Program-made: the position numbers and the translations under genes
Notes under the pieces: model-generated
Seen by the model: only the letters and a program-made list of their open reading frames with translations
Told to the model about the DNA's origin: nothing
The model's database searches: none
Shown: in pieces, positions 1 through 12,429 of the stretch
Numbering within the stretch: position 1 is the first letter of the stretch
How the letters are laid out: the number at the start of each line of letters is the position of its first letter
Origin: Cryomorphaceae bacterium 1068
Lineage (GTDB): Bacteria > Bacteroidota > Bacteroidia > Flavobacteriales_D > Cryomorphaceae
Reading direction: 5' to 3'
DNA: 64,000 nt
NCBI GenBank assembly: GCA_027214385.1
Contig: JAPVXR010000005.1
Location: 1-64,000, forward strand

Positions 1-1
1 C

Positions 2-79
2 TTCTTACCTTCAGATGGAGTCAAAGAATTACTAGACAATGAAATAGAAAAAAGAAATACGCTTGCCATCAAAACCTAA
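2..79 (+). CDS. 3' end of a gene cut by the window edge
   Basis: An open frame enters from the left edge and ends at TAA (77-79), giving about 25 C-terminal residues. The tail is hydrophilic (LLDNEIEKRNTLAIKT at the end). It is too short to assign a family. It is called coding because it is open from base 2 and has ordinary composition, but 25 codons could stay open by chance. Confidence 0.4.
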   Translation, partial: FLPSDGVKELLDNEIEKRNTLAIKT

Positions 80-380
80 ACTGCATTAAAACGCATTTTA
101 CATTCAACGTTAGCCTGACTGTCTCCAATCAGCTCAGCCCTTCAATCTACCCCCTGCGAGCTACGAACCACGCCCTACAAAATACACCTTGGCTGAATAC
201 TGAATAACACCTGCCACCGACCACTGCCCACCCACCTGATTTCAATACAACCGAATTTCCATTAAATTTGGATATGATCAACCGGACACAATCGGTTTAA
301 TGCCAAATAAGCGCCACTAAGCCGAGCGTTCTCACGGGAGGCAACGAACTTTATTCAATCGCGAGCCACAACTAACTAAA
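80..380. other. Intergenic region upstream of the DUF6544-like gene
   Basis: About 300 bases without a credible open frame. The middle (159-235) is built of 7-bp units and is listed separately. I see no TAnnTTTG-type promoter in front of the gene at 381. Confidence 0.5.
159..235. repeat. Degenerate 7-bp tandem repeat, short copy
   Basis: From about 159 the sequence can be cut into eleven consecutive heptamers without indels, for example aaccacg, ccctaca, aaataca, then tgaatac, tgaataa, cacctgc, caccgac, cactgcc and cacccac. The first units match the ctacgaa/ccctacg vocabulary of the much longer block at 1582-1826, so the two probably belong to one repeat family. Confidence 0.5.
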
Positions 381-1581: not shown

Positions 1582-1826
1582 CCCTAAGCCCCACACCCTA
1601 AAAATCACGCCCTACACACTACCCACTACCCACCACTAAATACGCACTACGCCCTACGCCCTACGCTCTACGCACTACGAAATACGCACTACGAAATACG
1701 CACTACACACTACGCCCTACGCCCTACGCCCTACGAAATACGCCCTACGAAATACGCCCTAACTTAATACCACCAACCATCGACTATCGACCATCGACCA
1801 CAAAACCATCTACCACAGACCAACAA
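1582..1826. repeat. Long 7-bp tandem repeat (35 units, no indels)
   Basis: The block reads as 35 consecutive heptamers in one register. The core (1582-1763) uses a few variants of ccctacg, cactacg and aaatacg, most sharing TACG at the end. From 1764 the register continues with caccaac, catcgac, tatcgac, catcgac and cacaaaa. Substitutions are common but the 7-bp phase is never broken. No protein product is likely, because 7 bp rotates through all frames. A 14-bp stretch (1779-1792) recurs inverted at 3032-3045. Confidence 0.85.
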
Positions 1827-1955: not shown

Positions 1956-2579
1956 TTAGGCCGCCATTACCAGGGCTACATCGCTGTAGGCGCTCGTCAT
2001 ATCGCCACTGATGGCCATTACACGAAACCAGTACATCGTGCCGCGCGTCAGGTTTTGCACCGTACCGCTGCTCTTTGACGTTACCAAGGCTACCGTCCAT
2101 TGGGGCTCGGCCACCGCAGGATCGGCAGTGCTTACCTCTACCTGGTAGGCCTTGCTGTAGCTTACGGCTTTCCAGTTTAAGATTACCTCACCTTCCTTCT
2201 TGCTGCGCTCGGCCAAGAAGTCGATGGGTTGACCCAAACTCGTAGCAGGCTCACGCTGCTTGCGCACTTCAAATCCCGAGCTCTCGATCACCTCACCATC
2301 GCCATTGGCTACAAAGGCTACATATTGCCCCAATTGGCGCATCATGGCTGTAAAAGCCCGCTGCCCGTTGTTGCGGCTGTTTATCGCGCGTCTGTCGCCG
2401 AAGGCAGCCGCCTCTACGCGGTCTTCAAAAGCGTCAAGCGCGGTTTGCAAATCTGCCAGCGACGGTACAGGATCAGGAAAGCTGGCATTTCCCGTCATGT
2501 TTGCAATGATCAGACGGCCCTTGGCGAGCAAGTCTGTCGGTTTTAGGCCCGTGAGGCCCAGTTTGATTTGATTTTCCAT
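1956..2579 (-). CDS. Fibronectin type III domain protein without signal peptide
   Basis: A 207-residue protein. Residues ~115-205 form a fibronectin type III domain: a V-L-N-W-K strand, the central YQVEVS strand, and the L-T-R-G-x-x-Y-W-F-R-V turn that marks FN3 modules. The first ~110 residues are helical (TDLLAKGRLIIANMTGN, then an ALDAFEDRVEAAAFGDRRA helix) and resemble the N-terminal part of a small Bacteroidota family with the same layout. There is no signal peptide or sorting domain, so a cytosolic or phage/tailocin-like structural role is possible but unproven. The gene is visibly richer in G+C than its neighbours, is flanked by repeat blocks and has its own terminator, which may point to transfer. 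Confidence 0.8.
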   Translation of the reverse strand: MENQIKLGLTGLKPTDLLAKGRLIIANMTGNASFPDPVPSLADLQTALDAFEDRVEAAAFGDRRAINSRNNGQRAFTAMMRQLGQYVAFVANGDGEVIESSGFEVRKQREPATSLGQPIDFLAERSKKEGEVILNWKAVSYSKAYQVEVSTADPAVAEPQWTVALVTSKSSGTVQNLTRGTMYWFRVMAISGDMTSAYSDVALVMAA

Positions 2580-3257
2580 AGTATTTAAATTTTATGGATA
2601 AATGGCTGTCCACTTTGGCGCAGCTCACAGACCTATACTAAACTGCAAAAAGAAAGTTTCAAGAAAATAGAAAATTAACATATATAAACAGACGACACGA
2701 AGCGGGGGCTGCGGCCTTAAACTATTGAAGATGAGAGAATCAGAAGGCCTTGGTCGCTATTCGAAAGATAAGAAAAAGATCCAAAAAAAGAAGACGACCA
2801 AGTGGGGCAATGATGGTCTTCACACGACGAAAGAAGACCATCACACGACGGAAGATAGGCATCAAGTGGGGCAATGAGGGTCTTCACACGACGAAAGAAG
2901 ACGATCACACAACTGATGATAGGCATCAAGTGGGGCAATGAGGGTCTTCATACGACGGAAGAACACCTTCACACGAGGAAAGAACCCCTTCATGGCACGC
3001 GTTAATGCCATCAAGTGGGGAGACGGTCTGTGGTCGATAGTCGATTGACTAAGTTACAGGCCTGGTGAAACGAGCAGCACGGGAGATTTCAACTTTTATC
3101 AACAGGGTAGAGGAGGTGAAAGGGGAATTTGTATTTTGTGGGGGAATTAAGGTTAACCAAATGGAGAGACAGCCCATAGATTAGAGAATAGCTCAACCTA
3201 GTAGATAGGTCTGGGAGCACTCTGTCTTCTTGGTTGACGGGAAAAAATAAAACGACT
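2580..3257. other. Long intergenic region with 21-bp repeats
   Basis: Nearly 680 bases without a convincing gene. Bases 2580-2790 are A/T-rich and include a short open frame from ATG 2731. Bases 2790-3025 are tandem repeats. An inverted copy of part of the 7-bp block lies at 3032-3045. The rest up to 3257 shows no recognisable element. Confidence 0.6.
2790..3025. repeat. Degenerate 21/22-bp tandem repeat with 64-bp higher-order period
   Basis: The word AGTGGGG occurs at 2801, 2865, 2929 and 3014, spacings of 64, 64 and 85. Each 64-bp unit splits into sub-units of 21, 21 and 22 bp built around tTCACACGACGgAAGA or aTCAAGTGGGGcAA; the last spacing (85) is 64+21. About eleven sub-units are visible. 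Because 64 is one more than a multiple of three, the encoded motif HTTKEDxHTTxDRHQVGQ changes frame in every unit and ends in TGA each time, so a long repetitive protein is not encoded. Confidence 0.85.
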
Positions 3258-3578
3258 ATGAAAAAGTTACTTCTGATAATGCTCATCTCGATACCTGCGC
3301 TGGTCGTGGGGCAGGAAACGGTGAAGTATGATTATATGACAATCGTTCAGCGGGGTGACATCATCGCGATTAGTGAAGGGGAGAACTATGAAATCATCAA
3401 GATTAAAAAAGAAAAGGAAGGCGCTGATGATTATCGGCCTATTTTAAAGATGGCAGAAGCGTTTGAATTGGAGAGTTGGCAAGTTTATGAAGTAGATATG
3501 GGGGAAGCATACGGTTATGTCAGATTAGCTTTTATAATGAGGCGGGAGAAGGGATACGCAGGTAATGAAGATAAATAG
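3258..3578 (+). CDS. Small secreted protein of unknown function
   Basis: Starting at ATG 3258 (eight codons after the first in-frame ATG) gives 106 residues beginning with a clear signal peptide: MKKLL, a hydrophobic core, and a likely cut after VVGQ. The mature part is mixed alpha/beta and charged (IVQRGDIIAISEGENYE, then KEKEGADDYRPILKMAEAFE, and a C-terminal VRLAFIMRREKGY). I do not recognise a family. The later start is preferred because it puts the basic n-region directly before the hydrophobic core. Confidence 0.7.
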   Translation: MKKLLLIMLISIPALVVGQETVKYDYMTIVQRGDIIAISEGENYEIIKIKKEKEGADDYRPILKMAEAFELESWQVYEVDMGEAYGYVRLAFIMRREKGYAGNEDK

Positions 3579-3580
3579 AA

Positions 3581-3612
3581 GTGCCGCAGGGTTGCAAACC
3601 CGGCGGAGCAGA
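3581..3612 (+). repeat. Intergenic hairpin element, copy A
   Basis: GGGT (3589-3592), five-base loop TGCAA, ACCC (3598-3601), flanked by GCCGCA on the left and GGCGGAGCAGAT on the right. It sits just after the stop codon at 3578. Confidence 0.75.
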
Positions 3613-3679
3613 TTTTTGAGTGAAAAATCGATTTCTAAAGCCTCACGTTTCTTAGCTTAGCGTTGTGCTTCACGCGAAA

Positions 3680-4015
3680 ATGAAAAATCTTCACCTATTC
3701 ATATATACGACTTTGTTAATGACATGCTTTCAGTCATGTAAAACTTTTGACGCTACAGTTGAAAGCAATGACACATGTCGAGTTCATGAATGTAAAATGA
3801 AAGTTGCTCGGACTCCGATAAAATACGGACGAGGTCCGATGAAAACTAAAATTGAATCTGACTTTTTCGATTACCCCAATACGAAGACCGACCACTATGG
3901 CGGATGCATTATAGATAAGGATCGACCTAAAATTTACAAATATTACTATTGCCAAGAATGCCAACAATTAGCGAAAAGAGAAAGAAAAAAGCACGAAGCA
4001 CAACAATCGCTATAA
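3680..4015 (+). CDS. Small lipoprotein with Cys/His motif
   Basis: Starting at ATG 3680 (in frame after an upstream GTG) gives 111 residues. A lipobox ending in FQSC lies near residue 20, so it should be a lipoprotein. The mature part has C-R-V-H-E-C-K-M followed by P-I-K-Y-G-R-G-P, and near the end Y-Y-C-Q-E-C, suggesting a metal- or disulfide-bound core. A motif of the form C-x-H-x(3)-M-x(5)-P-I-x-Y-G recurs in small Bacteroidota proteins of unknown function; I recall this rather than having checked it. The C-terminus is strongly basic. Confidence 0.7.
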   Translation: MKNLHLFIYTTLLMTCFQSCKTFDATVESNDTCRVHECKMKVARTPIKYGRGPMKTKIESDFFDYPNTKTDHYGGCIIDKDRPKIYKYYYCQECQQLAKRERKKHEAQQSL

Positions 4016-4040
4016 AAACATGCCCTTCGGGCCACGTTTC

Positions 4041-4070
4041 ATAGCGGGAATATTACCCAGCGGAGCAGAT
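4041..4070 (+). repeat. Intergenic hairpin element, copy B
   Basis: GGGA (4046-4049), loop ATATT, ACCC (4055-4058), followed by AGCGGAGCAGAT as in copy A. Just before it is a separate small hairpin GCCC-TTCG-GGGC (about 4022-4032). Confidence 0.65.
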
Positions 4071-4106
4071 TTACCGGGCAAAGCATGGCATTAAAAACAG
4101 AATAAA

Positions 4107-4589
4107 ATGAGTTCAACTGTCCCCACCTTTCGACAAGTCGCTTGGATCTCACTGTTCCCTCATCTGCTGGTCATGGGAATATTTATGTTGATCTGGTATC
4201 AGTTTGATACGTCCGCTTTTATTCTCTACGGAGCAGCCACTTACTTGATCCTTTCGCAATTCTTAAGACAGACCATTGCTAAGGAACATAGAAAAGGAAT
4301 GGCCAGTGTGAAACGCGAAGATTTTAAAAATGCCATTCCACACTTTGAGCAGAGTTACGCCTTTTTTAAAAAGTATGACTGGGTAGACAAGTATAGATTT
4401 CTAACTTTATTGAGTTCTGGCAAGATATCGTACAAAGAAATGGCATTGAACAACATCGCGTTTTGTTATGGGCAAATGGGAAACGGAAAAGCCTCGAAAG
4501 AATACTACGAAAGAACGTTGAAAGAATTTCCCGAAAGTGGAATAGCCAAAGCCGCATTAAGGCTTTTGAACTCAATGTCCAATGAATAA
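4107..4589 (+). CDS. Membrane protein with TPR-like helical tail
   Basis: A 160-residue protein with two transmembrane helices close together (about 15-31 and 36-51) followed by a helical region. The segment MALNNIAFCYGQMGNGKASKEYYERTLKEFP has the A-x-x-Y-G-x-x-G pattern and the ...Y-x-x-x-L-x-x-x-P ending of a tetratricopeptide repeat; a weaker one precedes it (AIPHFEQSYAFFKKYDWVDKY). It is probably an inner-membrane protein presenting TPR helices to the cytosol. The partner is unknown. Confidence 0.7.
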   Translation: MSSTVPTFRQVAWISLFPHLLVMGIFMLIWYQFDTSAFILYGAATYLILSQFLRQTIAKEHRKGMASVKREDFKNAIPHFEQSYAFFKKYDWVDKYRFLTLLSSGKISYKEMALNNIAFCYGQMGNGKASKEYYERTLKEFPESGIAKAALRLLNSMSNE

Positions 4590-4593
4590 ATGT

Positions 4594-4630
4594 GCTCCGC
4601 TCCTCGGGGTATGTCACCCAGCTGAACTAA
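4594..4630 (+). repeat. Intergenic hairpin element, copy C
   Basis: GGGT (4607-4610), loop ATGTC, ACCC (4616-4619), with GCTCCGCTCC on the left and AGCTGAACTAAA on the right. Confidence 0.7.
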
Positions 4631-4684
4631 AACAAATACCGTAGTTTACATACCTAGCGGGCAAATATTTATAATTCAATAAAA

Positions 4685-5236
4685 ATGAAAGAAGTCTTTT
4701 TTTTAATCCTTTTTGGCCTTATTTGCATGAGTGGTTTCTCGCAAGTGGTATTCGACTTTGACAAAGATGAGGCCCTATTTGAGAGAGTCATTGTAGTAGA
4801 TACAATCTCCAAAGACGATCAATACAAGAGGGCTCGATTATGGATGGCTGAAAATTTGAAATCCTCAGATGAGCAAATACTGGCCGATGAGGAAAACCAC
4901 GAGTTCATAATTGGAACGGGAAATGTCTTTCTCCCCGATCAGACGCTTCTAAGAGAAAAGGTCGTGAACTTCAAAATGTCCATTTACTTTCGGGAAGGCA
5001 GGTATAAGGTAATTTTCAGCGAATTGGTTTATTCATGGGTAGCGGTCAGTATGGACATGACAACGCGCACTCCTGGTATGCTAGAGCTCAATGAAAACTA
5101 CAAGAAGCTTTATTCGAAGAAGAAAATTAAAAAAACAAAAGTGGAAGAAGAGATCGATACCGCTTTTGAAAACTTGCTGGATGATTTGAATGACGCAATT
5201 ACAGGCGGTTCAGAAAATCATTCAGATGACTGGTAG
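4685..5236 (+). CDS. DUF4468-like secreted protein
   Basis: A 183-residue protein with a signal peptide (MKEVFFLILFGLICMSGFSQ). The mature part begins VVFDFDKDEALFERVIVVDTIS, then K-D-D-x-Y-x-R-A-R-L-W-M-A-E, and later a VNFKMSIYFREGRYKV-F-S-E-L-V-Y strand pair. This order matches the DUF4468 (TBP-like fold) domain common in Bacteroidota exported proteins. Function is unknown. The C-terminal ~50 residues are charged and probably helical (KKKIKKTKVEEE then ENLLDDLNDAI). Confidence 0.8.
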   Translation: MKEVFFLILFGLICMSGFSQVVFDFDKDEALFERVIVVDTISKDDQYKRARLWMAENLKSSDEQILADEENHEFIIGTGNVFLPDQTLLREKVVNFKMSIYFREGRYKVIFSELVYSWVAVSMDMTTRTPGMLELNENYKKLYSKKKIKKTKVEEEIDTAFENLLDDLNDAITGGSENHSDDW

Positions 5237-5359
5237 TAAAACGGAAAATCAGTGTTACCCTTTCCTCGCTCCACAAGGCAGCAATCAGGGGAGAAGGGCT
5301 TTTTCCGCGTTTTAGCAACCAAAAAACTACGATAATGCACGCAAAGTGAAATTTTTAAT

Positions 5360-5713
5360 ATGACAGGACATATTTTCTTTTACTTGGGACTTTCACTAAT
5401 GGTGATACACGAGATGGATGCAATTCGATGTAAAGAGTGGCGAATATTTCCGGGCTTATCAATGCTGAGTGACAAAATTGGACATATAGTCTTCCTCTTT
5501 TTACACATTCCCCTTTTTTACTTTGTGTTTTGGAAGCTATCGCAGAGTCAAGATGTTGAAGCATTTATCTATGGATTCAACATATTTATGATTGTGCATT
5601 TAGCTCTTCATATACTTTTTCTAAAACACAAGAACAACGAATTCAAGGATTGGATTTCTTGGTCTATAATTATTGGAGCGGGTCTATGCGGAACTCTAGA
5701 CCTGTTGATTTAA
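5360..5713 (+). CDS. Small four-helix membrane protein (DUF6713-like)
   Basis: A 117-residue membrane protein. An opening helix carries the motif VIHEMDAIRCKEWRIFPG, followed by three further hydrophobic segments (about 43-57, 70-86 and 97-116). The H-E-M-D-A-x-R-x-x-E-W-R-I sequence is the signature I associate with DUF6713; function is unknown. Two hundred bases upstream hold only weak remnants of the hairpin family. Confidence 0.75.
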   Translation: MTGHIFFYLGLSLMVIHEMDAIRCKEWRIFPGLSMLSDKIGHIVFLFLHIPLFYFVFWKLSQSQDVEAFIYGFNIFMIVHLALHILFLKHKNNEFKDWISWSIIIGAGLCGTLDLLI

Positions 5714-5795
5714 CCGCTACGCAGGGTATCGCACCCGCTCCGCTGGGTTTGCAACCCCCAGCTCCGCAGGATTTGCAATCCTGCGGCACTAACCT
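5713..5795 (+). repeat. Three hairpin elements in tandem, copies D1-D3
   Basis: D1 is GGGT (5724-5727), loop ATCGC, ACCC. D2 is GGGT (5745-5748), loop TTGCA, ACCC. D3 has a perfect 9-bp stem, CCGCAGGAT (5764-5772), loop TTGCA, ATCCTGCGG (5778-5786), ending in CACTAACC. D3 is the best preserved palindrome of the family, and its compensated GGAT/ATCC stem suggests that base pairing is what is conserved. Confidence 0.85.
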
Positions 5796-5842
5796 AAGTA
5801 CCTCAACTCTCTGCACCAAACGAAGCCGCAATTCACCACGAA

Positions 5843-6334
5843 ATGAAAAACCCCGAAGCAATCGCCGAAATACGAGAGTATCCACCAACGCAAATCTTGT
5901 TTCGCGTCGTATGCGTGGCTTGGATGGCTTTCGCGATGTACAAGTTCAGCATCAATCCCGTCTTCTTCGGGCTCAGTATTCTGGCCGCCCTTACTGTCTT
6001 TTTACTCATTACCCGAATGGCGATAACCGTTACGGAAAATGCGGTGAGAATCGAACACCAAAGAATACTGCCATTCCTCTCCTTAGTGCTGGTATACCCG
6101 CTGGATGAAATAGAAGAGATACAGCTCGATATGGCCGATATGAGCATAGCTCCGCGCGTGCCTACGGATATCTCCGTTCTCTTTCCAAATGCGCGGGTTA
6201 TCAGGCCCGAGTCACTCAATATCAAACGAAAAGATACACCATGGAAGAAGTTCAGACTCGTCGGTACCAATGAACAATACAAAGACTTGGTCGGAATCGT
6301 ACAGTCTATGATGGCTAGTCGGGATAGTAGATAA
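5843..6334 (+). CDS. Membrane protein of unknown function, PH-like tail
   Basis: A 163-residue protein with two transmembrane helices (about 18-36 and 40-57), then a soluble domain opening MAITVTENAVRIEHQRILPF. The pattern of two helices followed by a strand-rich domain of ~100 residues resembles membrane-anchored PH-like proteins, but I cannot name a family. It follows the triple hairpin cluster by about 50 bases. Confidence 0.65.
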   Translation: MKNPEAIAEIREYPPTQILFRVVCVAWMAFAMYKFSINPVFFGLSILAALTVFLLITRMAITVTENAVRIEHQRILPFLSLVLVYPLDEIEEIQLDMADMSIAPRVPTDISVLFPNARVIRPESLNIKRKDTPWKKFRLVGTNEQYKDLVGIVQSMMASRDSR

Positions 6335-6392
6335 GCACCCGCTCCGCGAGGTATGCCACCCGTGCCGTGAGATTGTCAACTCGGCGGAACAG
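6335..6392 (+). repeat. Intergenic hairpin elements, copy E and a decayed second copy
   Basis: The first is AGGT (6349-6352), loop ATGCC, ACCC (6358-6361), with CCGCTCCGCG on its left. A second, poorly paired unit follows (about 6364-6387: GCCGTGAGAT...ACTCGGCGGAAC). The pair precedes the BACON lipoprotein gene. Confidence 0.65.
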
Positions 6393-6469
6393 TTAAATTG
6401 TGCATGGCATCCTTCGAACCAATTTTTCTATAAATTTGAAGGGTATAATGTGGCAAAAGCAAAAGTAAA

Positions 6470-7216
6470 ATGAGAAAAATAATGACTGGTAAGATTAAAT
6501 TTCAAATTGTGTTTTTCTGTCTTGGTGCAATACTTCTTGGGGGTTGTTCAAAAGATGAAGATGACGACAATGTTGGTAGCGGTACTTGCAGTGATGGTAT
6601 TCAGAATCAAAATGAAACCGACGTAGATTGTGGCGGTATATGCAGTCCGTGCAGTATGGTGCAACCCAACACGCTAAATGTAAGCAGTCAATCATTTTCT
6701 TTTGGTTCATCAAGTGGTTCGCGATCCGTATCCATAACCTCAAACGTTGATTGGTCAGTTTCCACTTCTTCATTTTGGATTAGCGCCTCTCCATCCAGCG
6801 GCAGCGACAATGGATCTATATCAGTTTCGGTAAGTTCCAATTCATCGACTAGTTCACGCAGCGGTGTCGTGACTGTATCAGGTGGTGGATTGACAAGAAA
6901 TATTTCTATTTCTCAGTCGGGTGAAGATGATCCGGAGCCCACTCAATACGGTACCATATCATTTTATCGGGCAGTTGGAAACGGACCGTTTGAGTTTTAC
7001 TTCGAAGGTGACTACTTAGGTACAATATACAGCACCTACTATACGAGCAATCCAGGCTGTTTTCCGAGCGGAGCAATGTACAACACGGATCTTTTGCCTT
7101 ATGGGAACTATTCTTATAATGCCTACATTTTAAATGGGCTGGGGGAGATAGTATACAATTATAGCGGAAGTGTATACTTGGATAATCCATGTGAGACCGT
7201 TGGAGTAGGGCCGTGA
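6470..7216 (+). CDS. BACON-domain lipoprotein
   Basis: A 248-residue protein with a lipoprotein signal (ILLGGCSKDEDDD; Cys near 26, acidic residues after it as in surface-exposed Bacteroidota lipoproteins). Next is a Cys-rich motif CSDGIQNQNETDVDCGG followed by CSPC, a short module seen in many secreted proteins. Residues ~65-150 are a Ser-rich BACON domain (strand-rich, DWSVS...WISASPSSG, ISISQSG end), usually a carbohydrate- or mucin-binding Ig-like fold. The last ~90 residues (aromatic, two Cys) are unassigned. A TAAATTTG motif (6431-6438) may be its -7 promoter element, but no TTG lies at the right distance. Confidence 0.8.
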   Translation: MRKIMTGKIKFQIVFFCLGAILLGGCSKDEDDDNVGSGTCSDGIQNQNETDVDCGGICSPCSMVQPNTLNVSSQSFSFGSSSGSRSVSITSNVDWSVSTSSFWISASPSSGSDNGSISVSVSSNSSTSSRSGVVTVSGGGLTRNISISQSGEDDPEPTQYGTISFYRAVGNGPFEFYFEGDYLGTIYSTYYTSNPGCFPSGAMYNTDLLPYGNYSYNAYILNGLGEIVYNYSGSVYLDNPCETVGVGP

Positions 7217-7237
7217 TAAGATCATCTGCTCTTTATT

Positions 7238-7310
7238 CCCCGCTCCACAGGGCATGCCACCCTGGGGAACTAATAAAAACCGCAGGGTATCATACACGGC
7301 GGAGCAGGTA
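7238..7310 (+). repeat. Intergenic hairpin elements, copies F1 and F2
   Basis: F1 is GGGC (7250-7253), loop ATGCC, ACCC (7259-7262), with CAGGG/CCCTG extending the stem. F2 is GGGT (7285-7288), loop ATCAT, ACAC, followed by GGCGGAGCAGGT. Both keep the five-base loop. Confidence 0.75.
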
Positions 7311-7383
7311 AGACTTTTGAAAGTGGATCAACATCTTTTCTTTGGCAGGAAATTGCATCTTGCAGGGCAGTGATTAAATTAAA

Positions 7384-7845
7384 ATGAAAACAAGACTTGT
7401 ATTATTTGCCTGCTGCTTCTTCCATTTCTCAGAAATTTACAGCCAAGATGTTGAATTCCGCAGCATTATTGAAACCTGCGCACAATCAATGAATGAATTT
7501 TGGGCTGATAATGATATTGATAGGCATATCACGTATAGCGACAGCTCGAGGATCATTGGCTTTGACGAAGGGTCTGAGAAGTATGTTTTACGCGATATTG
7601 ATCACGATGCCGTTTGGACTATTCAGTTTACCGAAGATTCGAGGGACTCGCTCTACTTAACCTTTGATAATGAAGGAACATGGCGGCACGTATTCCGACT
7701 TATCAATGAAGATGACAGTTGGACAGTAGTCGAACACCTGATGACTATTGCGAAAGATAAACCCGATTCAAGAGATGCTGAACGTTTCCAGGAGTTATTA
7801 GATTCTCATGAAAGCGAGAAGGCAAGAGGAAATAAGAAAAACTAA
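7384..7845 (+). CDS. Secreted protein of unknown function
   Basis: A 153-residue protein with an N-terminal signal peptide (MKTRLVLFACCFFHFSEIYSQ). The mature domain is acidic with alternating strands (HITYSDSSRIIGFDEGSEKYVLRDI..., LYLTFDNEGTW, DSWTVVEHLM) and a helical charged tail ending in KNKK-like basic residues. I do not recognise the family. Gaps on both sides carry the local hairpin family. Confidence 0.7.
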   Translation: MKTRLVLFACCFFHFSEIYSQDVEFRSIIETCAQSMNEFWADNDIDRHITYSDSSRIIGFDEGSEKYVLRDIDHDAVWTIQFTEDSRDSLYLTFDNEGTWRHVFRLINEDDSWTVVEHLMTIAKDKPDSRDAERFQELLDSHESEKARGNKKN

Positions 7846-7880
7846 GCCCCGCAACGAAGGGTGTGCCACCCAGCGGCACT
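7845..7880 (+). repeat. Intergenic hairpin element, copy G
   Basis: GGGT (7859-7862), loop GTGCC, ACCC (7868-7871), with CCCCGCAACGAA on the left and AGCGGCACTA on the right. It begins one base after the stop codon at 7843-7845. Confidence 0.7.
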
Positions 7881-7967
7881 ATACGCTCACTTCGGAGCCA
7901 GAAATTTAATTCGCCACCTCTGTCGTTAAATGTCAATTTATGTCGTCCTACGTATAAAAATACACCA

Positions 7968-8486
7968 ATGAAACGCCATATAGCATTCTTCATTTTCCTG
8001 TTTTCATATTCTATCGCTACCGCTCAAGAAGTAGATTTGACCGACGAGTTTCTCCAATTGGAGGAATACCTAACGGTTATGGACTCCTTAAACGAAAGCG
8101 TTTCACAAGCTCCGGTCAAATGGCATTTATTGCACTTGCTACAAGTCATCAATGGAACGATGGCTACAGCGACCCACTCAGATCCGGATGGGTTTGAGTC
8201 AAAATCGAGTTTCGAATGGTTTTATGTTTCGACAACCGGAAAAATTCCAAGAGGAGTAGGGAAAGCTCCCGATGCGGTAAACCCAAGTTTTGACATTAGC
8301 GAAGACGACATTAGAATCGAATTGGAAGCCGCTAAGCTGAGCTTGATGCAATGGAGTGATTTGGATGACGACAACTATTTTAGACATCCCGTATTTCTTG
8401 ACCTGAATAAACGTAAGCTAAAGAAGTTCCTCAAGATTCACACGCGCCATCACTTGCATATAGTGGAAGATATAGTCGAGCTTTAA
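7968..8486 (+). CDS. Exported DUF1569/DinB-like protein
   Basis: Starting at ATG 7968 gives 172 residues with a signal peptide (MKRHIAFFIFLFSYSIATAQ); the open frame extends 35 codons upstream but that part runs through the hairpin element. The mature part has the outline of a DUF1569/DinB four-helix bundle: W-H-L-L-H-L-L in an early helix, then the late HPVF turn followed by L-K-K-F-L-K-I-H-T-R-H-H-L-H-I-V. The histidines at the helix ends could bind a metal. DUF1569 proteins I know of are cytoplasmic, so export is unusual. The assignment rests on motif spacing only. Confidence 0.65.
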   Translation: MKRHIAFFIFLFSYSIATAQEVDLTDEFLQLEEYLTVMDSLNESVSQAPVKWHLLHLLQVINGTMATATHSDPDGFESKSSFEWFYVSTTGKIPRGVGKAPDAVNPSFDISEDDIRIELEAAKLSLMQWSDLDDDNYFRHPVFLDLNKRKLKKFLKIHTRHHLHIVEDIVEL

Positions 8487-8528
8487 AAGGAGATTGCGTT
8501 ATAGGAACATATTTCATTTAGATTATGT

Positions 8529-8565
8529 CACCGCTGCACAGGGTACGCCACCCTGTGCTAAGTTG
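8529..8565 (+). repeat. Intergenic hairpin element, copy H (perfect)
   Basis: GCACAGGGT (8536-8544), loop ACGCC, ACCCTGTGC (8550-8558): a perfect 9-bp stem with the family's five-base loop, preceded by ACCGCT and followed by TAAGTTGCAAC. Confidence 0.85.
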
Positions 8566-8631
8566 CAACTCATCCATGCTTCGGTTTTCACTACCGAATT
8601 TTATAGCCCTTGGCAGGTTTTGCTTACTTTT

Positions 8632-8651
8632 GGGATGCGAACGTAAAACCC
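8632..8651. repeat. Dispersed 20-bp word, copy 1
   Basis: GGGATGCGAACGT followed by AAAACCC. The same word with one substitution occurs at 10836-10855. Both copies are intergenic. Confidence 0.5.
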
Positions 8652-8749
8652 GTAGGGCAAAATAGGCAACGCTGCGGTGCAGAGGGACAAAAATTCGACC
8701 TGAACAATCCCAAAAATAAAGTAAGGCATTTGAGCAAATTAAATTTAGT

Positions 8750-9097
8750 ATGAAAAGAGTATTGAGACTGGCGGTCATTGTAATCGGACTTTCAACATTT
8801 TCTAGTTGTGCCATACACACCGGATATATGAACAACTCGGCATCATTGAGTCAGGCTAATTTTAGCTATACGCAAACAAGTATCTCCGGCACTGCATCTA
8901 CTTTAAAGGTTTTTGGATTTGGTGGGCTTGCAAAATCGGCACTTGTGGATGACGCGAAGAAAGATATGTTGGAAAACCATCCTCTTCAATCCAATCAAGC
9001 GCTTGCCAATATTACGGTAAATTGGAAAACGGGATTCTTTATTTTTGCACAGAATCATCAATGCACGATTACTGCTGATATTGTTGAATTCAACTAA
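8750..9097 (+). CDS. Small lipoprotein (DUF6567-like)
   Basis: A 115-residue protein with a lipobox (FSSC, Cys near residue 21). The mature part reads GYMNNSASLSQANFSYTQ, then G-T-A-S-x-L-K-V-F-G-F-G-G-L-A-K-x-A-L-V-D-x-A-K-K-D-M, then N-Q-A-L-A-N-I-T-V-N-W-K and ends TITADIVEF. This series of motifs matches a short Bacteroidota lipoprotein family that I recall as DUF6567; function unknown. The gene at 9108 follows after 10 bases, so they are probably co-transcribed. Confidence 0.8.
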   Translation: MKRVLRLAVIVIGLSTFSSCAIHTGYMNNSASLSQANFSYTQTSISGTASTLKVFGFGGLAKSALVDDAKKDMLENHPLQSNQALANITVNWKTGFFIFAQNHQCTITADIVEFN

Positions 9098-9107
9098 TGG
9101 GAGATTG

Positions 9108-9317
9108 ATGAAAAGAGCCGTTCTCATATTTTTGATTTTCGTTCCATTCGTGTCTTGAAAGAAGGACGACGGATGTGTGGATGAGCGTAAAAAGGGAGAT
9201 TACTATTGTTTGACCGTTTACGACCCCGTATGTGGCTGCGATGGCAAGACCTATGGAAACTCTTGCGAAGCCGAAAGAGAGGGTGTGACTTCTTGGACAG
9301 AAGGCACCTGTGATTAA
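9108..9317 (+). pseudogene. Kazal-type inhibitor lipoprotein with TGA at the lipobox cysteine
   Basis: The frame from ATG 9108 encodes a lipoprotein signal (MKRAVLIFLIFVPFVS), then TGA at 9156-9158, then KKDDGCVDERK and a compact Kazal domain (CLTVYDPVCGCDGKTYGNSC, ending TSWTEGTCD) to TAA at 9315-9317. The TGA falls exactly where the lipobox cysteine is expected, since VS-C-KKDD would be a normal export signal, and one base change from TGC or TGT explains it. The Kazal cysteines and the VCGCDGKTYGN signature are intact. The gene is therefore freshly broken or the base is a sequencing error. Without the signal the domain would not be exported. TGA is a normal stop elsewhere in the window (for example in def). 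Confidence 0.8.
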
Positions 9318-9367
9318 AGCCACACGATGCGAAGCGATTTACCGGTAGGCTAATCAATAAGGCCATG

Positions 9368-9404
9368 TCGGGAGCTATGCGCAAGTTCTCCGCTCCCGAG
9401 ATTT
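9368..9404. other. Hairpin downstream of the Kazal gene
   Basis: TCGGGAGC (9368-9375) pairs perfectly with GCTCCCGA (9392-9399) around a 16-nt loop, followed by GATTTTA. It could be a weak terminator for the 8750-9317 unit; the T-run is short. Confidence 0.35.
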
Positions 9405-9556
9405 TACCTTCGGTGTTATTGTTCGTTATTACTGCTTTTCAGACAGTTAGGATCTGCCTCGCCTTGGCAGCTTTTCCGAAGGGATAGGTTTAGAATTTAT
9501 GTAGAAGATTGCCATGCAAGAGGATTCTAGCGTCGTATAGCAGCACTTCACCACTC

Positions 9557-10342
9557 TCAATTCATCTCTTCCAGTAGTTTATTGATCAGGGTGTGCGTAT
9601 TCTCCAATTCCCAATCGTATTGATCGGTATCTTCTTCAATTGCCTTTTTGAATAGTTTGAAGGCTTTCAGTCTGAGTTTGGCATACTTGAGCAGAAGTGC
9701 GTTCTGTTGTATCAAATCATCAGGTAGGTCGGCCATCTCATTTGTCTTTTCTATGATTTGGATATTCTCTTCCCATTTGGGAATGATTTTTCTGTCCAGT
9801 TCGCGCAGCAGGGTATTGCTTTGTTTGGTGCCCAAATGCTCATAGAAAATCATTGTTTCCGTCTCGTTCTGAAAGAAGGTCTCCATCTCGGCATCGTATT
9901 GGTCGTAAGCTTCCGCCTCAGGCGATAAGAAGGCATAGCTCAAAAGGCCTATTGCCATTACTGCTAGCGAGATAAGTCCGATGCCTGCCGCTTTCCATGT
10001 CGAGTAGAATTGGTTTTCATGCTCCTTGTGCTGAGTCAATACCTTGCCCTGAATCTTCTCCACGATCAAATAGATAATGAGGGTGTAGACGGCAGGGATA
10101 ATTTGATTGGGCACCTTATCAATGATGGATTCGGGAAGCGAGAAAATGACAATGAAGATGACCGCCGTAGCAACGAATCCAAGAATGAATGCACTTCGGC
10201 CCTTATCCGGTTGGTCCAATGAGCGGTAATTCTCTCTGATCAGGTATCCCGATGCCATAGGCCCGCCGAGGAAAGTAGCGATTCCGATGGATTTTTGAGA
10301 ATAGAACTTAAGCTCCTTGGTGTCGTTTTCGTTTTCTGCCAT
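9557..10342 (-). CDS. Four-helix membrane protein with helical C-terminal domain
   Basis: A 261-residue protein. Hydrophobic segments at about 18-35 (SIGIATFLGGPMASGYLI), 50-68, 80-95 and 118-138 place the first half in the inner membrane. Residues ~145-261 are a charged, probably helical cytosolic or periplasmic domain (DRKIIPKWEENIQIIEKTNEM...). The KSIGIATFLGGPMASGYLIREN motif recurs in unnamed flavobacterial membrane proteins, as far as I recall. Function is unknown. It has a good upstream promoter at 10399-10428. Confidence 0.75.
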   Translation of the reverse strand: MAENENDTKELKFYSQKSIGIATFLGGPMASGYLIRENYRSLDQPDKGRSAFILGFVATAVIFIVIFSLPESIIDKVPNQIIPAVYTLIIYLIVEKIQGKVLTQHKEHENQFYSTWKAAGIGLISLAVMAIGLLSYAFLSPEAEAYDQYDAEMETFFQNETETMIFYEHLGTKQSNTLLRELDRKIIPKWEENIQIIEKTNEMADLPDDLIQQNALLLKYAKLRLKAFKLFKKAIEEDTDQYDWELENTHTLINKLLEEMN

Positions 10343-10398
10343 TTCTGCGTTTTTGATGTTGCTCAGGACGTCAATTCTCTGTTTGTCTCAATTCTTCC

Positions 10399-10428
10399 CA
10401 AAAATAGCCAACCTTCCGCTTTTTGCAA
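10399..10428 (-). promoter_or_regulatory. Bacteroidota-type promoter for the membrane protein gene
   Basis: Read on the minus strand: TTG (10428-10426), 19-bp spacer, TATTTTTG (10406-10399). This fits the TTG / 17-23 bp / TAnnTTTG consensus and lies about 57 bases before the start codon at 10342. Confidence 0.6.
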
Positions 10429-10549
10429 GAGTTCTTCCAAGATCTGGACATACACTACAGCCGATTTCCTTGCTTCGCTGCCTGAGACCTCTTAGCTTAG
10501 CAAGAGCTATTATAAAGTTTAAAACACACCTATCTCAACATTCGCTATC

Positions 10550-10735
10550 ATGGATAAACAAATAAAAAGAAAAGCACTCATCCTCTTGGCGATCGGCCTA
10601 TTGATCATCGCAGCTTCGCAAGTCGTATCTCATTACATCGTACTTCCCGATTTCGCCAATGGCGTCTTGATAGGAACGGGCGTTGGCTTGTTGCTGATCG
10701 CTTTGATCTTTGGAAGTTTCAGAATGGCGAAATAG
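10550..10735 (+). CDS. Small two-helix membrane protein
   Basis: A 61-residue protein: a basic start (MDKQIKRK), a hydrophobic helix (about 9-27), a short loop with HYIVLPDFANG, a second Gly-rich helix (38-55) and a basic end. No family recognised. The ~200-bp gap to the divergent gene holds that gene's promoter; none is evident for this one. Confidence 0.65.
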   Translation: MDKQIKRKALILLAIGLLIIAASQVVSHYIVLPDFANGVLIGTGVGLLLIALIFGSFRMAK

Positions 10736-10835
10736 TGAATCCGCTCCGTATAGAGGCAGGCGCATCGCACACATTGAGAGACACAGATCTTAGTGGCTCC
10801 GGATTCTTATAGAAGAATGTTCTTCAAGAGGATTC

Positions 10836-10855
10836 GGGATGCGAACGTCAAACCC
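10836..10855. repeat. Dispersed 20-bp word, copy 2
   Basis: GGGATGCGAACGT followed by CAAACCC, one substitution from the copy at 8632-8651. It lies between the convergent genes ending at 10735 and 10921. Confidence 0.5.
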
Positions 10856-10920
10856 TCCGAGCTCATATTTTTGATTTCGCCCGGCAGGCTATCCCTTCGT
10901 TGAAGCAGATGCCGCCGAGA

Positions 10921-11361
10921 TCAATCCAAGCTGGATTTGCTCAAAGAAATCTCCTGCGTATCGGGAGATTTTAGGTCTTGTTCAATATTGAAAGGGATAC
11001 CGAGTTTTTTGCTTGCCCAACCCTCGCTGGTGTACATCAAGAAAGTAGAATCATCAGTGCGAACGACATCAAGCAATTGTGCAAAAGCTGCCACTCTGGG
11101 CGAATCCATCAAAAGTGCTACACGGCCTGTAGTTGTCAGCTCCTTGTTATCGGCTAAAGCTTTAGCAATTTGCTTTGTTTCTTTTACTTCCATTAACAGG
11201 GTTACACCCCTCAGGTCAACCAAAATGTCTAGGGCAGGATGGTAATCAGGGTCTTGCCATATCTTCTCTGCCCCGTTCATCCACAATGAGAAGGTGAATT
11301 CTCCCGTAAATTGTTGAATCATGAGGTTTCTCTCCTTTATAATCACATACCGCATTTCCAT
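10921..11361 (-). CDS. SpoIIAA-like/STAS-related cytosolic protein
   Basis: A 146-residue soluble protein without signal. The pattern of alternating strand and amphipathic helix (MIQQFTGEFTF... ALDILVDLRGVTLLM... TKQIAKALADN... RVALLMDSPRVAAFAQLL... FLMYTSEGWASKKLGI) resembles SpoIIAA-like/STAS domains, which often carry a D-L-R turn after the second strand. The ending EGWASKKLGI is typical of this group. Role unknown; perhaps a response or stress protein. Start could be Met1 or Met3. Confidence 0.65.
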   Translation of the reverse strand: MEMRYVIIKERNLMIQQFTGEFTFSLWMNGAEKIWQDPDYHPALDILVDLRGVTLLMEVKETKQIAKALADNKELTTTGRVALLMDSPRVAAFAQLLDVVRTDDSTFLMYTSEGWASKKLGIPFNIEQDLKSPDTQEISLSKSSLD

Positions 11362-11381
11362 GGCTTGTTTTAAAACGGGCG

Positions 11382-11416
11382 CAAAGCTAATGGAATTTGG
11401 TAGGCGTGCATAACAA
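11382..11416 (-). promoter_or_regulatory. Likely promoter for the STAS-like gene
   Basis: Minus strand: TTG (11416-11414), 24-bp spacer, TAGCTTTG (11389-11382), 20 bases before the start codon. The -7 element is perfect; the spacer is slightly long. Confidence 0.5.
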
Positions 11417-11458
11417 CCCCGTGGCTTTTAACATAACTTGTTAATTTCCCTCTCTATG

Positions 11459-11475
11459 CCGGGTATGCCCCCTGT
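11459..11475 (+). repeat. Decayed hairpin element, outlying copy
   Basis: GGG-T-ATGCC-CCC at 11461-11472 keeps the five-base ATGCC loop seen in copies E and F1 but has lost the flanks. It is the only likely member found outside 3581-8565. Confidence 0.4.
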
Positions 11476-11747
11476 ACATGAGTCACATCATTGTTAGGAG
11501 GGTATAGTCTCAATATAGTTGAGAGATAATAAGGTCACCCGCTCTTATTTCAGATGGAAGATGGAGTGCCCTTCATCATGGCACGGCCTTCTGTTCCACC
11601 GCGTACGTTTTGCGCAAGCATACCTTCTTAAAGCAGCAGAATCCCTATTTTGTGGGGAGTATAAAAACTGATCAAAATAGATTTATGGCTAAGTATTGTC
11701 TGTGGTCATGTGCAGGTATGTACCTTTATTTGAAATAAGCATAGATT

Positions 11748-11930
11748 TTGAAATCAAAAAACAAAAAGTATTTGGGCTTGGCAATGGCACTTGGCGTGGC
11801 CATTGGTGGTATTGTTTCGTTTGTTACAGAAGGTGGTGCCTGGATTGCGATAGGCCTGGCATTGGGAGCAGTTATAGGTGCTCGGATGGATGCCCGTGAA
11901 CGAACCGGTGAGAACAACCCAAGCAATTGA
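11748..11930 (+). CDS. Small glycine-zipper membrane protein
   Basis: A 60-residue protein with a basic start (MKSKNKKY) and two Gly/Ala-rich hydrophobic stretches (LGLAMALGVAIGGIVSF and IAIGLALGAVIGARMDA). The G-x(3)-G spacing is that of glycine-zipper small membrane proteins. The C-terminus is polar. Function unknown. It is followed closely by the AHSA1-like gene and may share its transcript. Confidence 0.65.
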   Translation: MKSKNKKYLGLAMALGVAIGGIVSFVTEGGAWIAIGLALGAVIGARMDARERTGENNPSN

Positions 11931-11988
11931 AAACCCTCTCCGATAGGCTTTTCTCCGGAAAGAAGTCTCAACCAAAAAACCAAAATCC

Positions 11989-12429
11989 ATGAAGCTCAAA
12001 GCAAGTGCTTCCATTCAAATTCAAAAGCCCGTAGAAGAAGTCTACGAAGGGATCGTAAACCCCGACGCGATGACGAAGTATTTTATTTCGGAGAGCAACG
12101 GCCGACTTGACTCGGGAGAGGACTTGCTGTGGAAGTTTCCCGAATTTCCCGACAGGTATCCCATCACAAGTACCAAGGTTGAAGCCAATCGCACGGTCTC
12201 CTTCGTTTGGGACCCTGAAACCGTGGTCACCATTGCGCTGGAAGCTCTGCCCGGCAGGAGCACCGTGGTGCGCGTAAAGGAAAGCGGCAAGGAACTGAAT
12301 GAGGCAAACCTCAAGTGGGTGATTGAAAACTCGGGCGGATGGTCCAACTTTCTGGCCTGTCTGAAAGCCTATTTGGAGTATGGCATCCAATTGCGAAAAG
12401 GGGCGTATGATTTTATGTGCGTGAAATAA
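11989..12429 (+). CDS. SRPBCC / AHSA1-like protein
   Basis: A 146-residue cytosolic protein of the START/Bet v1-like superfamily, close to the AHSA1 (activator of Hsp90 ATPase homolog 1-like) group. Typical features are the opening I-Q-I-Q-K-P-V-E-E-V-Y-E-G-I-V-N-P, a middle WKFPEFPD region with R-T-V-S-F-V-W-D-P, and the C-terminal helix G-G-W-S-N-F-L-A-C-L-K-A-Y-L-E-Y-G. These proteins bind hydrophobic ligands; the ligand cannot be predicted. Start ATG 11989 gives normal family length. Confidence 0.85.
   Translation: MKLKASASIQIQKPVEEVYEGIVNPDAMTKYFISESNGRLDSGEDLLWKFPEFPDRYPITSTKVEANRTVSFVWDPETVVTIALEALPGRSTVVRVKESGKELNEANLKWVIENSGGWSNFLACLKAYLEYGIQLRKGAYDFMCVK

What the first reader, a model, noticed from the sequence alone, without database searches (positions are those of the whole stretch)
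3581..8565. A local family of intergenic hairpins with an invariant 5-nt loop, one or more after most genes of an orphan-gene run
At least eleven copies share the frame GCTCCGC(A)-GGGT-NNNNN-ACCC-(T)GCGGA/CACTAA. The stem sequence varies with compensation (GGAT/ATCC in D3), but the loop is always five bases, often ATGCC or TTGCA. They occupy most gaps between short same-strand genes, with one decayed copy at 11459. Some stems extend to a perfect 9 bp (5764-5786, 8536-8558). They could be REP-like elements moved by a REP-associated transposase elsewhere, RNA-processing signals in 3' UTRs, or recombination sites in a cassette-like gene run. Compensated stems argue for selection on, or replication as, a folded strand.
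Basis: partly seen in the sequence, partly recalled or inferred. Interest (0 to 1): 0.7.

Follow-up and report, generated by a model that had tools for sequence, protein, structure and literature searches.

The report
Old cluster of mobile DNA hairpins
The hairpins are small repeated DNA elements of the REP type, the end pieces of a short jumping gene that other bacteria of the same family still carry but this one seems to have lost; here they have piled up in the gaps of one run of small genes.

Summary
The hairpin family is real: 12 copies at 3579-8563, in 8 of the 9 gaps of a ten-gene same-strand run. It is not confined to the run. It is a REP (repetitive extragenic palindrome) family, scattered in this genome and common in its relatives. 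In relatives the same hairpins, often as inverted pairs, flank a RAYT transposase gene of the Bacteroidetes type (subclass 2.6). In 399 genomes of the order, REPs accompany the close RAYT clade (35 of 39 genomes, against 57 of 360 without it). The inner stem differs between species with compensation (0 of 500 shuffles as high), while the outer GCT foot is mostly kept (19 of 23); within the window alone there is no covariation signal. No RAYT gene was found in this genome by four searches, so these are probably stranded copies. One result goes beyond the given finding: similar REP-RAYT-REP units (91-98% alike) sit at different sites, and in the cleanest pair (two species, 96% over 769 nt) homology ends exactly at the outer GCTCC/GGAGC ends. 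That suggests these units moved whole, unlike classical RAYTs. The hairpins are not intrinsic terminators, and nothing supports integron-like cassettes.

The parts
3579..3612 (-). REP copy (25 of 26 to the core GCTCCGCTGGGTTTGCAACCCTGCGG), directly after stop of ORF 3258-3578
4036..4069 (-). REP copy, weak (22.8 bits with R1)
4596..4629 (+). REP copy; with 4630-4664 read as a decayed inverted doublet (REPIN); second half by eye
   Evidence: 4594-4664 DNA fold z -2.65
5713..5746 (+). REP copy, first of a direct triplet
   Evidence: 22.6 bits
5734..5767 (+). REP copy, second of the triplet (overlaps neighbours)
5758..5791 (+). REP copy with perfect stem CCGCAGGAT/ATCCTGCGG
   Evidence: z -4.92
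6338..6371 (+). REP copy, left half of an inverted pair
   Evidence: doublet 6340-6391 folds no better than shuffles (z 0.09)
6360..6393 (-). REP copy, right half of that pair (weakest, 19.4 bits)
7239..7272 (+). REP copy, left half of the best REPIN doublet of the window (7239-7308)
   Evidence: 7241-7306 z -3.06
7275..7308 (-). REP copy, right half of that REPIN
7848..7881 (+). REP copy 2 nt after stop of ORF 7384-7845
8530..8563 (+). REP copy with perfect 9-bp stem; CTAAGTTGC at 8558-8566, as in the 3' part of the long-loop form, may be chance (at least one such match in 40 of 100 shuffles of the window)
3258..9097 (+). run of ten same-strand ORFs (3258-3578, 3680-4015, 4107-4589, 4685-5236, 5360-5713, 5843-6334, 6470-7216, 7384-7845, 7968-8486, 8750-9097) whose gaps hold the copies

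Best explanation
The hairpins are REP sequences, some as inverted doublets (REPINs), of a Bacteroidota family cognate to RAYT transposases of subclass 2.6 (Bertels group 5). In relatives the autonomous unit is REP(+)-RAYT-REP(-), about 0.75 kb, ending 5'-GCTCC...GGAGC-3'; REPINs and single REPs are its shortened, non-autonomous derivatives. Presumed mechanism (inferred from IS200/IS605 and E. coli TnpA-REP, not shown here): the HUH-tyrosine transposase binds the folded hairpins on single-stranded DNA, cuts beside them and re-joins them elsewhere. In this genome no RAYT was found, so the window cluster is best read as an old local accumulation of stranded copies at the 3' ends of small genes, where insertion does least harm. 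Shown: family membership by sequence, link with RAYT, inverted-pair layout in many loci, compensated stems across species, exact unit ends in one pair of units and one further end, absence of RAYT from the assembly at the cut-offs used. Inferred: the transposition chemistry, the history of the cluster, lack of a host function.
For: Genome-wide: 37 matches of the window model in the own genome at E<=10 (32 places; five palindromic copies are matched on both strands), 20 at E<=0.01, of which 7 in the window (150 of 425 candidates scored, so lower bounds). 29 of 30 copies listed in the window and in the fetched own stretches are intergenic by simple ORF calls. RAYT: a 189-aa protein in same-family genome G006 hits NCBIfam REP_Tyr_transpos at 104 bits (cut-off 80) and Y1_Tnp at 37 bits (cut-off 23); NH[LI]H and SS are in all 9 close proteins, YIH[NQ]NP in 8 of 9. 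Of ten near-full-length RAYT places at >=54% identity, 9 were scanned: 9 of 9 have a model match within 250 nt and in 6 of 9 an outward inverted pair brackets the gene. Independent of the hairpin model, 48 of 65 named loci of these RAYTs have an inverted repeat between the two 300-nt flanks (score>=14), against 0 of 60 distal-flank controls. Co-occurrence in 399 genomes: close-clade RAYT (E<1e-63, cut chosen after seeing the list) 35 of 39 with REP, 57 of 360 without it have REP (Fisher 5.6e-21, relatedness not corrected). Folding: on 23 copies from 13 genomes, 8 of 9 pairs change on both sides, 0 of 500 shuffles reach any of the five measures, slid controls far lower. Cognate pairs: among 9 close RAYTs the tree groups genes by the inner stem of their REPs (GGGC/GGGT, support 0.99; GCAT, 0.97; GGAT, 0.82), G005 holding two types. 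Derivation: a G002 REPIN shares 62 of 65 nt with the left end of its RAYT unit. Own link: three own-genome copies match 26 of 26 core bases (the core was read from own copies), and the REPs beside the RAYT remnants in same-genus G001 and in G037 match 25 of 26.
Against: No RAYT in this assembly by four searches (E<=0.001, E<=1e-20, E<=10), so its presence in this species is not shown; a repeat-collapsed copy could be missing from the 59-contig assembly. Copy number is low for REPs (tens, a lower bound, not >100). The canonical GT[AG]G foot is absent. Within the window no covariation clearly exceeds shuffles and one doublet folds no better than chance. The distant RAYT clade is not clearly tied to this REP (9 of 25 genomes, p 0.09), and 41 of 92 REP-positive genomes have no RAYT at the cut used (at most 8 candidates scored per genome). 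G006 and G057 have flanking REPs in other orientations and G005:C83 a left copy only. 17 of 65 named loci showed no flanking inverted repeat. Rows of the 23-copy alignment were chosen by me, partly with a structure model, which favours pairing. No movement was observed.
Confidence: 0.85

Rival explanations
1. The hairpins are 3'-UTR signals (terminators or RNA-stability elements) selected gene by gene; repetition is convergence or co-option.
For: 12 of 12 window copies follow a stop codon, first in each gap within 43 nt; 23 of 28 classified copies lie between co-directional genes, 2 convergent, 3 divergent.
Against: Terminator-like sites in 3200-9200 are not above shuffles (5 vs mean 5.8), and only one of the 5, on the minus strand at 7847-7859, overlaps a copy (the edge of 7848-7881) and uses another stem. 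Copies stand in both orientations, in doublets and a triplet, and flank transposase genes in relatives. 3 of 28 are in divergent gaps.
Confidence: 0.1
2. The run is an integron-like or other recombinase-made cassette array with the hairpins as recombination sites.
For: Short same-strand genes, one or more elements in 8 of 9 gaps.
Against: Elements occur singly, in doublets and next to other genes elsewhere; no recombinase domain among the 20 window proteins between 381 and 18098 scanned with Pfam (integrases were not searched genome-wide); the homologue of ORF 3680-4015 in G005:C55 has no R1 match in its locus.
Confidence: 0.04
3. Decayed copies of an unrelated insertion sequence or MITE whose ends happen to resemble REPs.
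For: Unit ends are inverted repeats; one own-genome element is about 300 nt with a short left and a long right hairpin (C13:131901-132196).
Against: The transposase found between these ends is a Y1/HUH RAYT; transposases of other families between such ends were not searched for. Hairpin, not linear, conservation across species.
Confidence: 0.04

Closest known systems
REP sequences flanking TnpA-REP subclass 2.6 genes (= RAYT group 5) of Bacteroidetes, PMC6006769 (sections 12-13 read, passages elsewhere)
   Same: Bacteroidetes; no GT[AG]G foot; secondary structures flank the gene, copies elsewhere in the genome; protein motifs NH[LIV]H, YIH[QN]NP, SS and size about 180 aa match
   Different: [quoted passage not shown] here the hairpin is defined for one clade (GCT foot, compensated inner stem) and some similar units appear at different sites. 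Its supplementary table of motifs could not be read.
Classical REP/REPIN-RAYT systems of E. coli, Pseudomonas and Stenotrophomonas (PMC8266576: abstract and passages; PMC8049555: passages; PMC3116915: start of abstract in the search listing)
   Same: Palindromes mostly intergenic, inverted doublets, cognate transposase gene flanked by them, REP and transposase co-evolve, genomes with REPs that lost the RAYT (the last from PMC6006769 passages)
   Different: No GTAG tag, tens rather than hundreds of copies, two or more RAYT units in some genomes
TIRtrons/TIRYTs (PMC3733652, passages)
   Same: RAYT-like gene between terminal inverted repeats that form a dispersed family
   Different: Those TIRs are described as mostly unrelated to REPs; here the terminal repeats are the REP hairpins
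IS200/IS605 insertion sequences and their small derivatives (recalled, and passages of PMC6006769)
   Same: HUH-Y1 enzyme, hairpin ends, discrete unit with internal-deletion derivatives
   Different: The protein is a RAYT by NCBIfam (REP_Tyr_transpos above cut-off, IS200 model below its cut-off); end hairpins stand inverted to each other

Membership tests
REP sequence family | short imperfect palindrome dispersed in many intergenic places of one genome | tested here: met
   20 matches at E<=0.01 genome-wide, 29 of 30 listed copies intergenic; copy number lower than typical
REP sequence family | folding conserved (compensatory changes) | tested here: met
   across 13 genomes 8 of 9 pairs, 0/500 shuffles; not met on the 12 window copies alone
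REP sequence family | GTAG/GT[AG]G tetranucleotide at the foot | tested here: not met
   foot is GCT in 19 of 23 aligned copies, GTT in 2, GCA in 2; subclass 2.6 REPs are described as lacking GT[AG]G
REP sequence family | same palindrome flanks a RAYT gene | tested here: met
   in relatives, 9 of 9 scanned loci; 48 of 65 named loci by a model-free test
REP sequence family | cognate RAYT in the same genome | tested here: not met
   0 by PF01797, by protein, by profile, by NF047646; assembly of 59 contigs
REPIN | two REPs in inverted orientation with a short spacer | tested here: met
   7239-7308 in the window and C3:217485-217556; 11 chosen pairs in relatives printed; 6338-6393 inconclusive
RAYT subclass 2.6 (proteins in relatives) | NH[LIV]H, WQ, YIH[QN]NP, SS, about 179 aa, Bacteroidetes | tested here: met
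   WQ is WK or WL in 3 of the 9 close proteins; G005_C30 has YIHDNP
REP-RAYT-REP mobile unit | near-identical units at different sites with sharp common ends | tested here: met
   fully met by one pair: G373/G341, 96% over 769 nt ending at GCTCC/GGAGC with unrelated flanks. One end exact: G001/G037, 236 of 240. Similar but less clean: G005 91% over 734 nt, G099 97% over 684 nt (copies 1.3 kb apart, local duplication possible). Against: G040/G096 share the flanks too, i.e. the same inherited site. Movement not observed.
Integron cassette array | attC sites plus integron integrase, cassettes shared as units | tested here: inconclusive
   no recombinase among 20 Pfam-scanned window proteins; no shared gene-plus-element unit found; attC features and a genome-wide integrase were not searched
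Intrinsic terminator | hairpin followed by a run of T | tested here: not met
   none of the 12 hairpins is itself among the 5 hits; one minus-strand hit at 7847-7859 overlaps the edge of copy 7848 but uses another stem

The most novel reading that the evidence does not exclude
In this bacterial order the RAYT is not a tame, fixed gene but a true insertion sequence whose ends are REPs, and because any two outward-facing REPs can serve as ends, it has picked up and shuffled passenger genes: the run at 3.2-9.1 kb would be a store of such REP-bounded orphan genes (for example ORF 5843-6334 between the + copy at 5758 and the - copy at 6360).
Probability: 0.07. Interest if true: 0.85.

Novelty: new variant of a known kind. 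Interest (0 to 1): 0.52.

Why it matters
RAYTs are usually presented as domesticated, mostly single-copy transposases that move REPs but not themselves, and the REPs of the Bacteroidetes subclass are described only as atypical. Here those REPs get a defined anatomy for one clade (mostly constant GCT foot, species-specific compensated inner stem, tight loop), a cognate RAYT clade, and a testable claim that the whole REP-RAYT-REP unit moves. That would make this clade a living intermediate between an insertion sequence and a domesticated REP system, and gives many natural enzyme/hairpin pairs for specificity tests. For the window itself the message is modest: an old-looking REP cluster in a genome that apparently lost its transposase.

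Tried and rejected
Rfam at gathering thresholds: no match in the window. Own-genome RAYT: none. Gain/loss test between strains: the only same-genus genome searched, G001, shares the 1085-aa gene at 13274 (79%), but in the 58 kb of that contig that I fetched no other window ORF of 90 aa or more has a credible counterpart (one 33% partial hit to the ORF at 54492, plus antisense ORFs inside the shared gene), so no aligned run could be compared. DNA search of 3200-12000 in 60 relatives gave only matches up to about 280 nt. A foot motif over 48 named loci was not clean: stem start is ambiguous and the letters vary, so I claim the GCT foot only for the close clade. Loop length: the 5-nt loop is not universal. 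Window copies look more diverged than other own copies (mean 19.3 vs 21.9 of 26, p 0.05), but the yardstick was read from the other copies, so 'old' is weakly supported. The 'compensated within the window' argument was rejected. No structure prediction was run. Literature: the searches showed me, in the rows listed, no paper describing whole-unit movement of subclass 2.6 RAYTs; Bertels et al. 2017 is not held and supplementary files could not be read, so this is not proof that it is unpublished. PMC11194056 (passages) infers insertion of a RayT gene near abeS in Chryseobacterium, which points the same way.

Rows dropped or not seen: of 79 named RAYT loci (the best 80 of 444 relatives), 66 were typed into the flank test (13, mostly near contig ends, left out) and 65 had enough flank; distal controls existed for 60. 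G005:C80 had no locus when searches were made and was not scanned; one search left out L128, L130, L131 and L132, which one search had scanned. In the 399-genome searches at most 17 (REP) or 8 (RAYT) candidates per genome were scored. The 8 RAYT-positive genomes with weak or partial matches (E above 1e-45) fall in neither clade; 7 of these 8 have the REP. Three weak own-genome matches (C20:19036, C11:112952, C6:119296) are not among the 30 copies. The output was cut in the middle.
Full report
What is there. The window is the first 64 kb of contig C5 of a 4.32-Mb, 59-contig genome. A public contig titled 'Flavobacteriales bacterium' has the length of contig C11 of relative G040 (123,618) and its RAYT at the same place, so the order is most likely Flavobacteriales. 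Between 3579 and 8563 lie 12 copies of a hairpin with the frame GCTCCGC-n-GGGT-loop-ACCC-n-GCGG. They fill 8 of 9 gaps of a run of ten same-strand ORFs. Eight are on the plus and four on the minus strand; 7239-7308 is a good inverted doublet, 6338-6393 and 4594-4664 are poor or decayed ones. A copy at 11459 is not supported.

Chance and folding. Apart from reverse-strand echoes of the copies themselves, the best scores in the rest of the window are E 0.12 and worse. On 23 copies from 13 genomes, chosen by me, the same nine pairs show changes on both sides in 8 pairs, 90% of cells paired, and none of 500 shuffles as high on any measure; slid structures pair at 31-46%. Inner stems are mostly GGGT/ACCC here; at the RAYT loci of relatives they are GCAT/ATGC in G002 and G005:C49, GGAT/ATCC in G024 and G057, GCAG/CTGC in G040, and GGGC/GCCC with a 4-nt loop in G005:C30, G006 and G007. 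One genome can hold more than one type.

Distribution. The model finds 37 matches (32 places) in the own genome at E<=10 and 20 at E<=0.01; 7 of these 20 are in the 5-kb run, which the model, built from them, favours. Outside the run they come singly or in twos. By simple ORF calls, 29 of 30 listed copies are intergenic and 23 of 28 in co-directional gaps. A second model built from the 23 copies finds the element in 92 of 399 genomes of the order at E<=0.001.

The transposase. In G006, of the same family, dense arrays of the element surround a gene for a 189-aa protein, which NCBIfam names REP-associated tyrosine transposase above its cut-off and Pfam Y1_Tnp. The profile of nine such proteins weakly matches solved structures 4er8 (TnpA-REP) and two other transposases. 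The motifs fit subclass 2.6 of PMC6006769: Bacteroidetes, no GT[AG]G foot, atypical flanking structures with copies elsewhere. All 9 close RAYT loci scanned have an element within 250 nt; in 6 of 9 an inverted pair with outer GCT ends brackets the gene, G006 and G057 have other orientations and G005:C83 a left copy only. A model-free test on named loci from the genome collection, whose titles I recognise as Bacteroidota, found an inverted repeat between the two gene flanks in 48 of 65, against 0 of 60 distal controls. The stems differ from species to species. Across 399 genomes the close clade of RAYT and the element go together (35 of 39 against 57 of 360); the distant clade does not clearly (9 of 25, p 0.09). 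Relatedness of the genomes is not corrected for, and the clade cut was set after seeing the list. Among nine close RAYTs the tree sorts by inner stem type, and G005 holds two types, each with its own stem; the deeper nodes are poorly supported.

Units and derivatives. In G002, a REPIN of about 160 nt shares 62 of 65 nt at its left end with the RAYT unit: it looks like a unit with the gene deleted. RAYT units of 96% identity in G373 and G341, two species of one genus, share 769 nt that begin at GCTCC and end at GGAGC, with unrelated flanks. G001 (same genus as the window) and G037 (another family) share 236 of 240 nt from inside the RAYT to GGAGC, and G037 holds a second such right end at a contig end; both may be metagenome bins, so mis-binning cannot be excluded for this pair. 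G005 holds two units of 91% identity on different contigs, alike to within 3 nt of GCTCC on one side and diverging inside the hairpin on the other. G099 holds two of 97%, 1.3 kb apart, alike to within 4 nt of CTCC on one side and diverging inside the hairpin on the other; G114 holds two in tandem. These last may be local duplications. On the other side, G040 and G096 share their RAYT together with its flanks (88% over 3.5 kb), that is, at one inherited site, and repeats in G170 do not end at hairpins. [quoted passage not shown] The present cases suggest that some subclass 2.6 units do, or recently did.

The own genome. No RAYT is found by four searches; the last, at E<=10, rang in 8 of 14 control genomes (over the cut-off in 1). 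Three own copies match all 26 core bases; the REPs beside the RAYT remnants in G001 and G037 match 25. The own genome also holds long-loop copies like the one after the RAYT of G001 and G037. So the elements probably descend from that type of unit, and its gene is now lost or missing from the assembly. RAYT loss with REPs remaining is suspected or documented elsewhere (passage) and common here (41 of 92 REP-positive genomes, with capped candidates).

Judgement. The unusual parts are the density of copies in one run of small genes, and, beyond the window, the evidence that this RAYT clade can move as an insertion sequence with REPs as its ends. How the enzyme cuts, why the run attracted copies, and whether any hairpin now serves its gene are not shown.

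Noticed in passing
window 9108-9317 (+): Small ORF with a Kazal-like cysteine pattern (label recalled, not searched) and a lipoprotein-like start, interrupted by an in-frame TGA about where a lipobox cysteine would stand.
   Followed up: partly
window 1956-2579 (-): Fibronectin-III-type 207-aa protein with 10 copies in this genome but 0-2 in the seven family relatives; 5 of the 10 lie within 10 kb of a hairpin match, post hoc.
   Followed up: partly
G000:C16:57936-58003, C13:128598-128672, C6:196745-196804, C13:132125-132196: Long-loop form of the same element (loop longer by about 34 nt, GTGAGATCG...CTAAGTTGC), like the right end of the RAYT unit in G001:C28 and G037:C55.
   Followed up: partly
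window about 4001-4047; G000:C9:1722, C21:34194, C20:25845; G002:C4, G036:C20: A second short repeat family (TGCCCTTCGGG...ACGTTTC) near several of the hairpins.
   Followed up: no
window 1600-1800: Low-complexity tract of CTACGCCCTACG/AAATACG units with matches at several places of C1 and at C24, C11 and C6.
   Followed up: no
G335:C152:1-1223 (L181): Head-to-tail array of C-terminal halves of RAYT genes, about 400 nt each, about 94% alike, each with a hairpin element.
   Followed up: partly
starts of G000:C13 and C9: Two contigs begin inside what looks like one inverted doublet, overlapping by 17 nt (seen by eye); assembly breaks may fall on these elements.
   Followed up: no
window 1-111 and G000:C3:1-111: The first 111 nt of two contigs are 95% identical, a repeat at both contig starts.
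   Followed up: no
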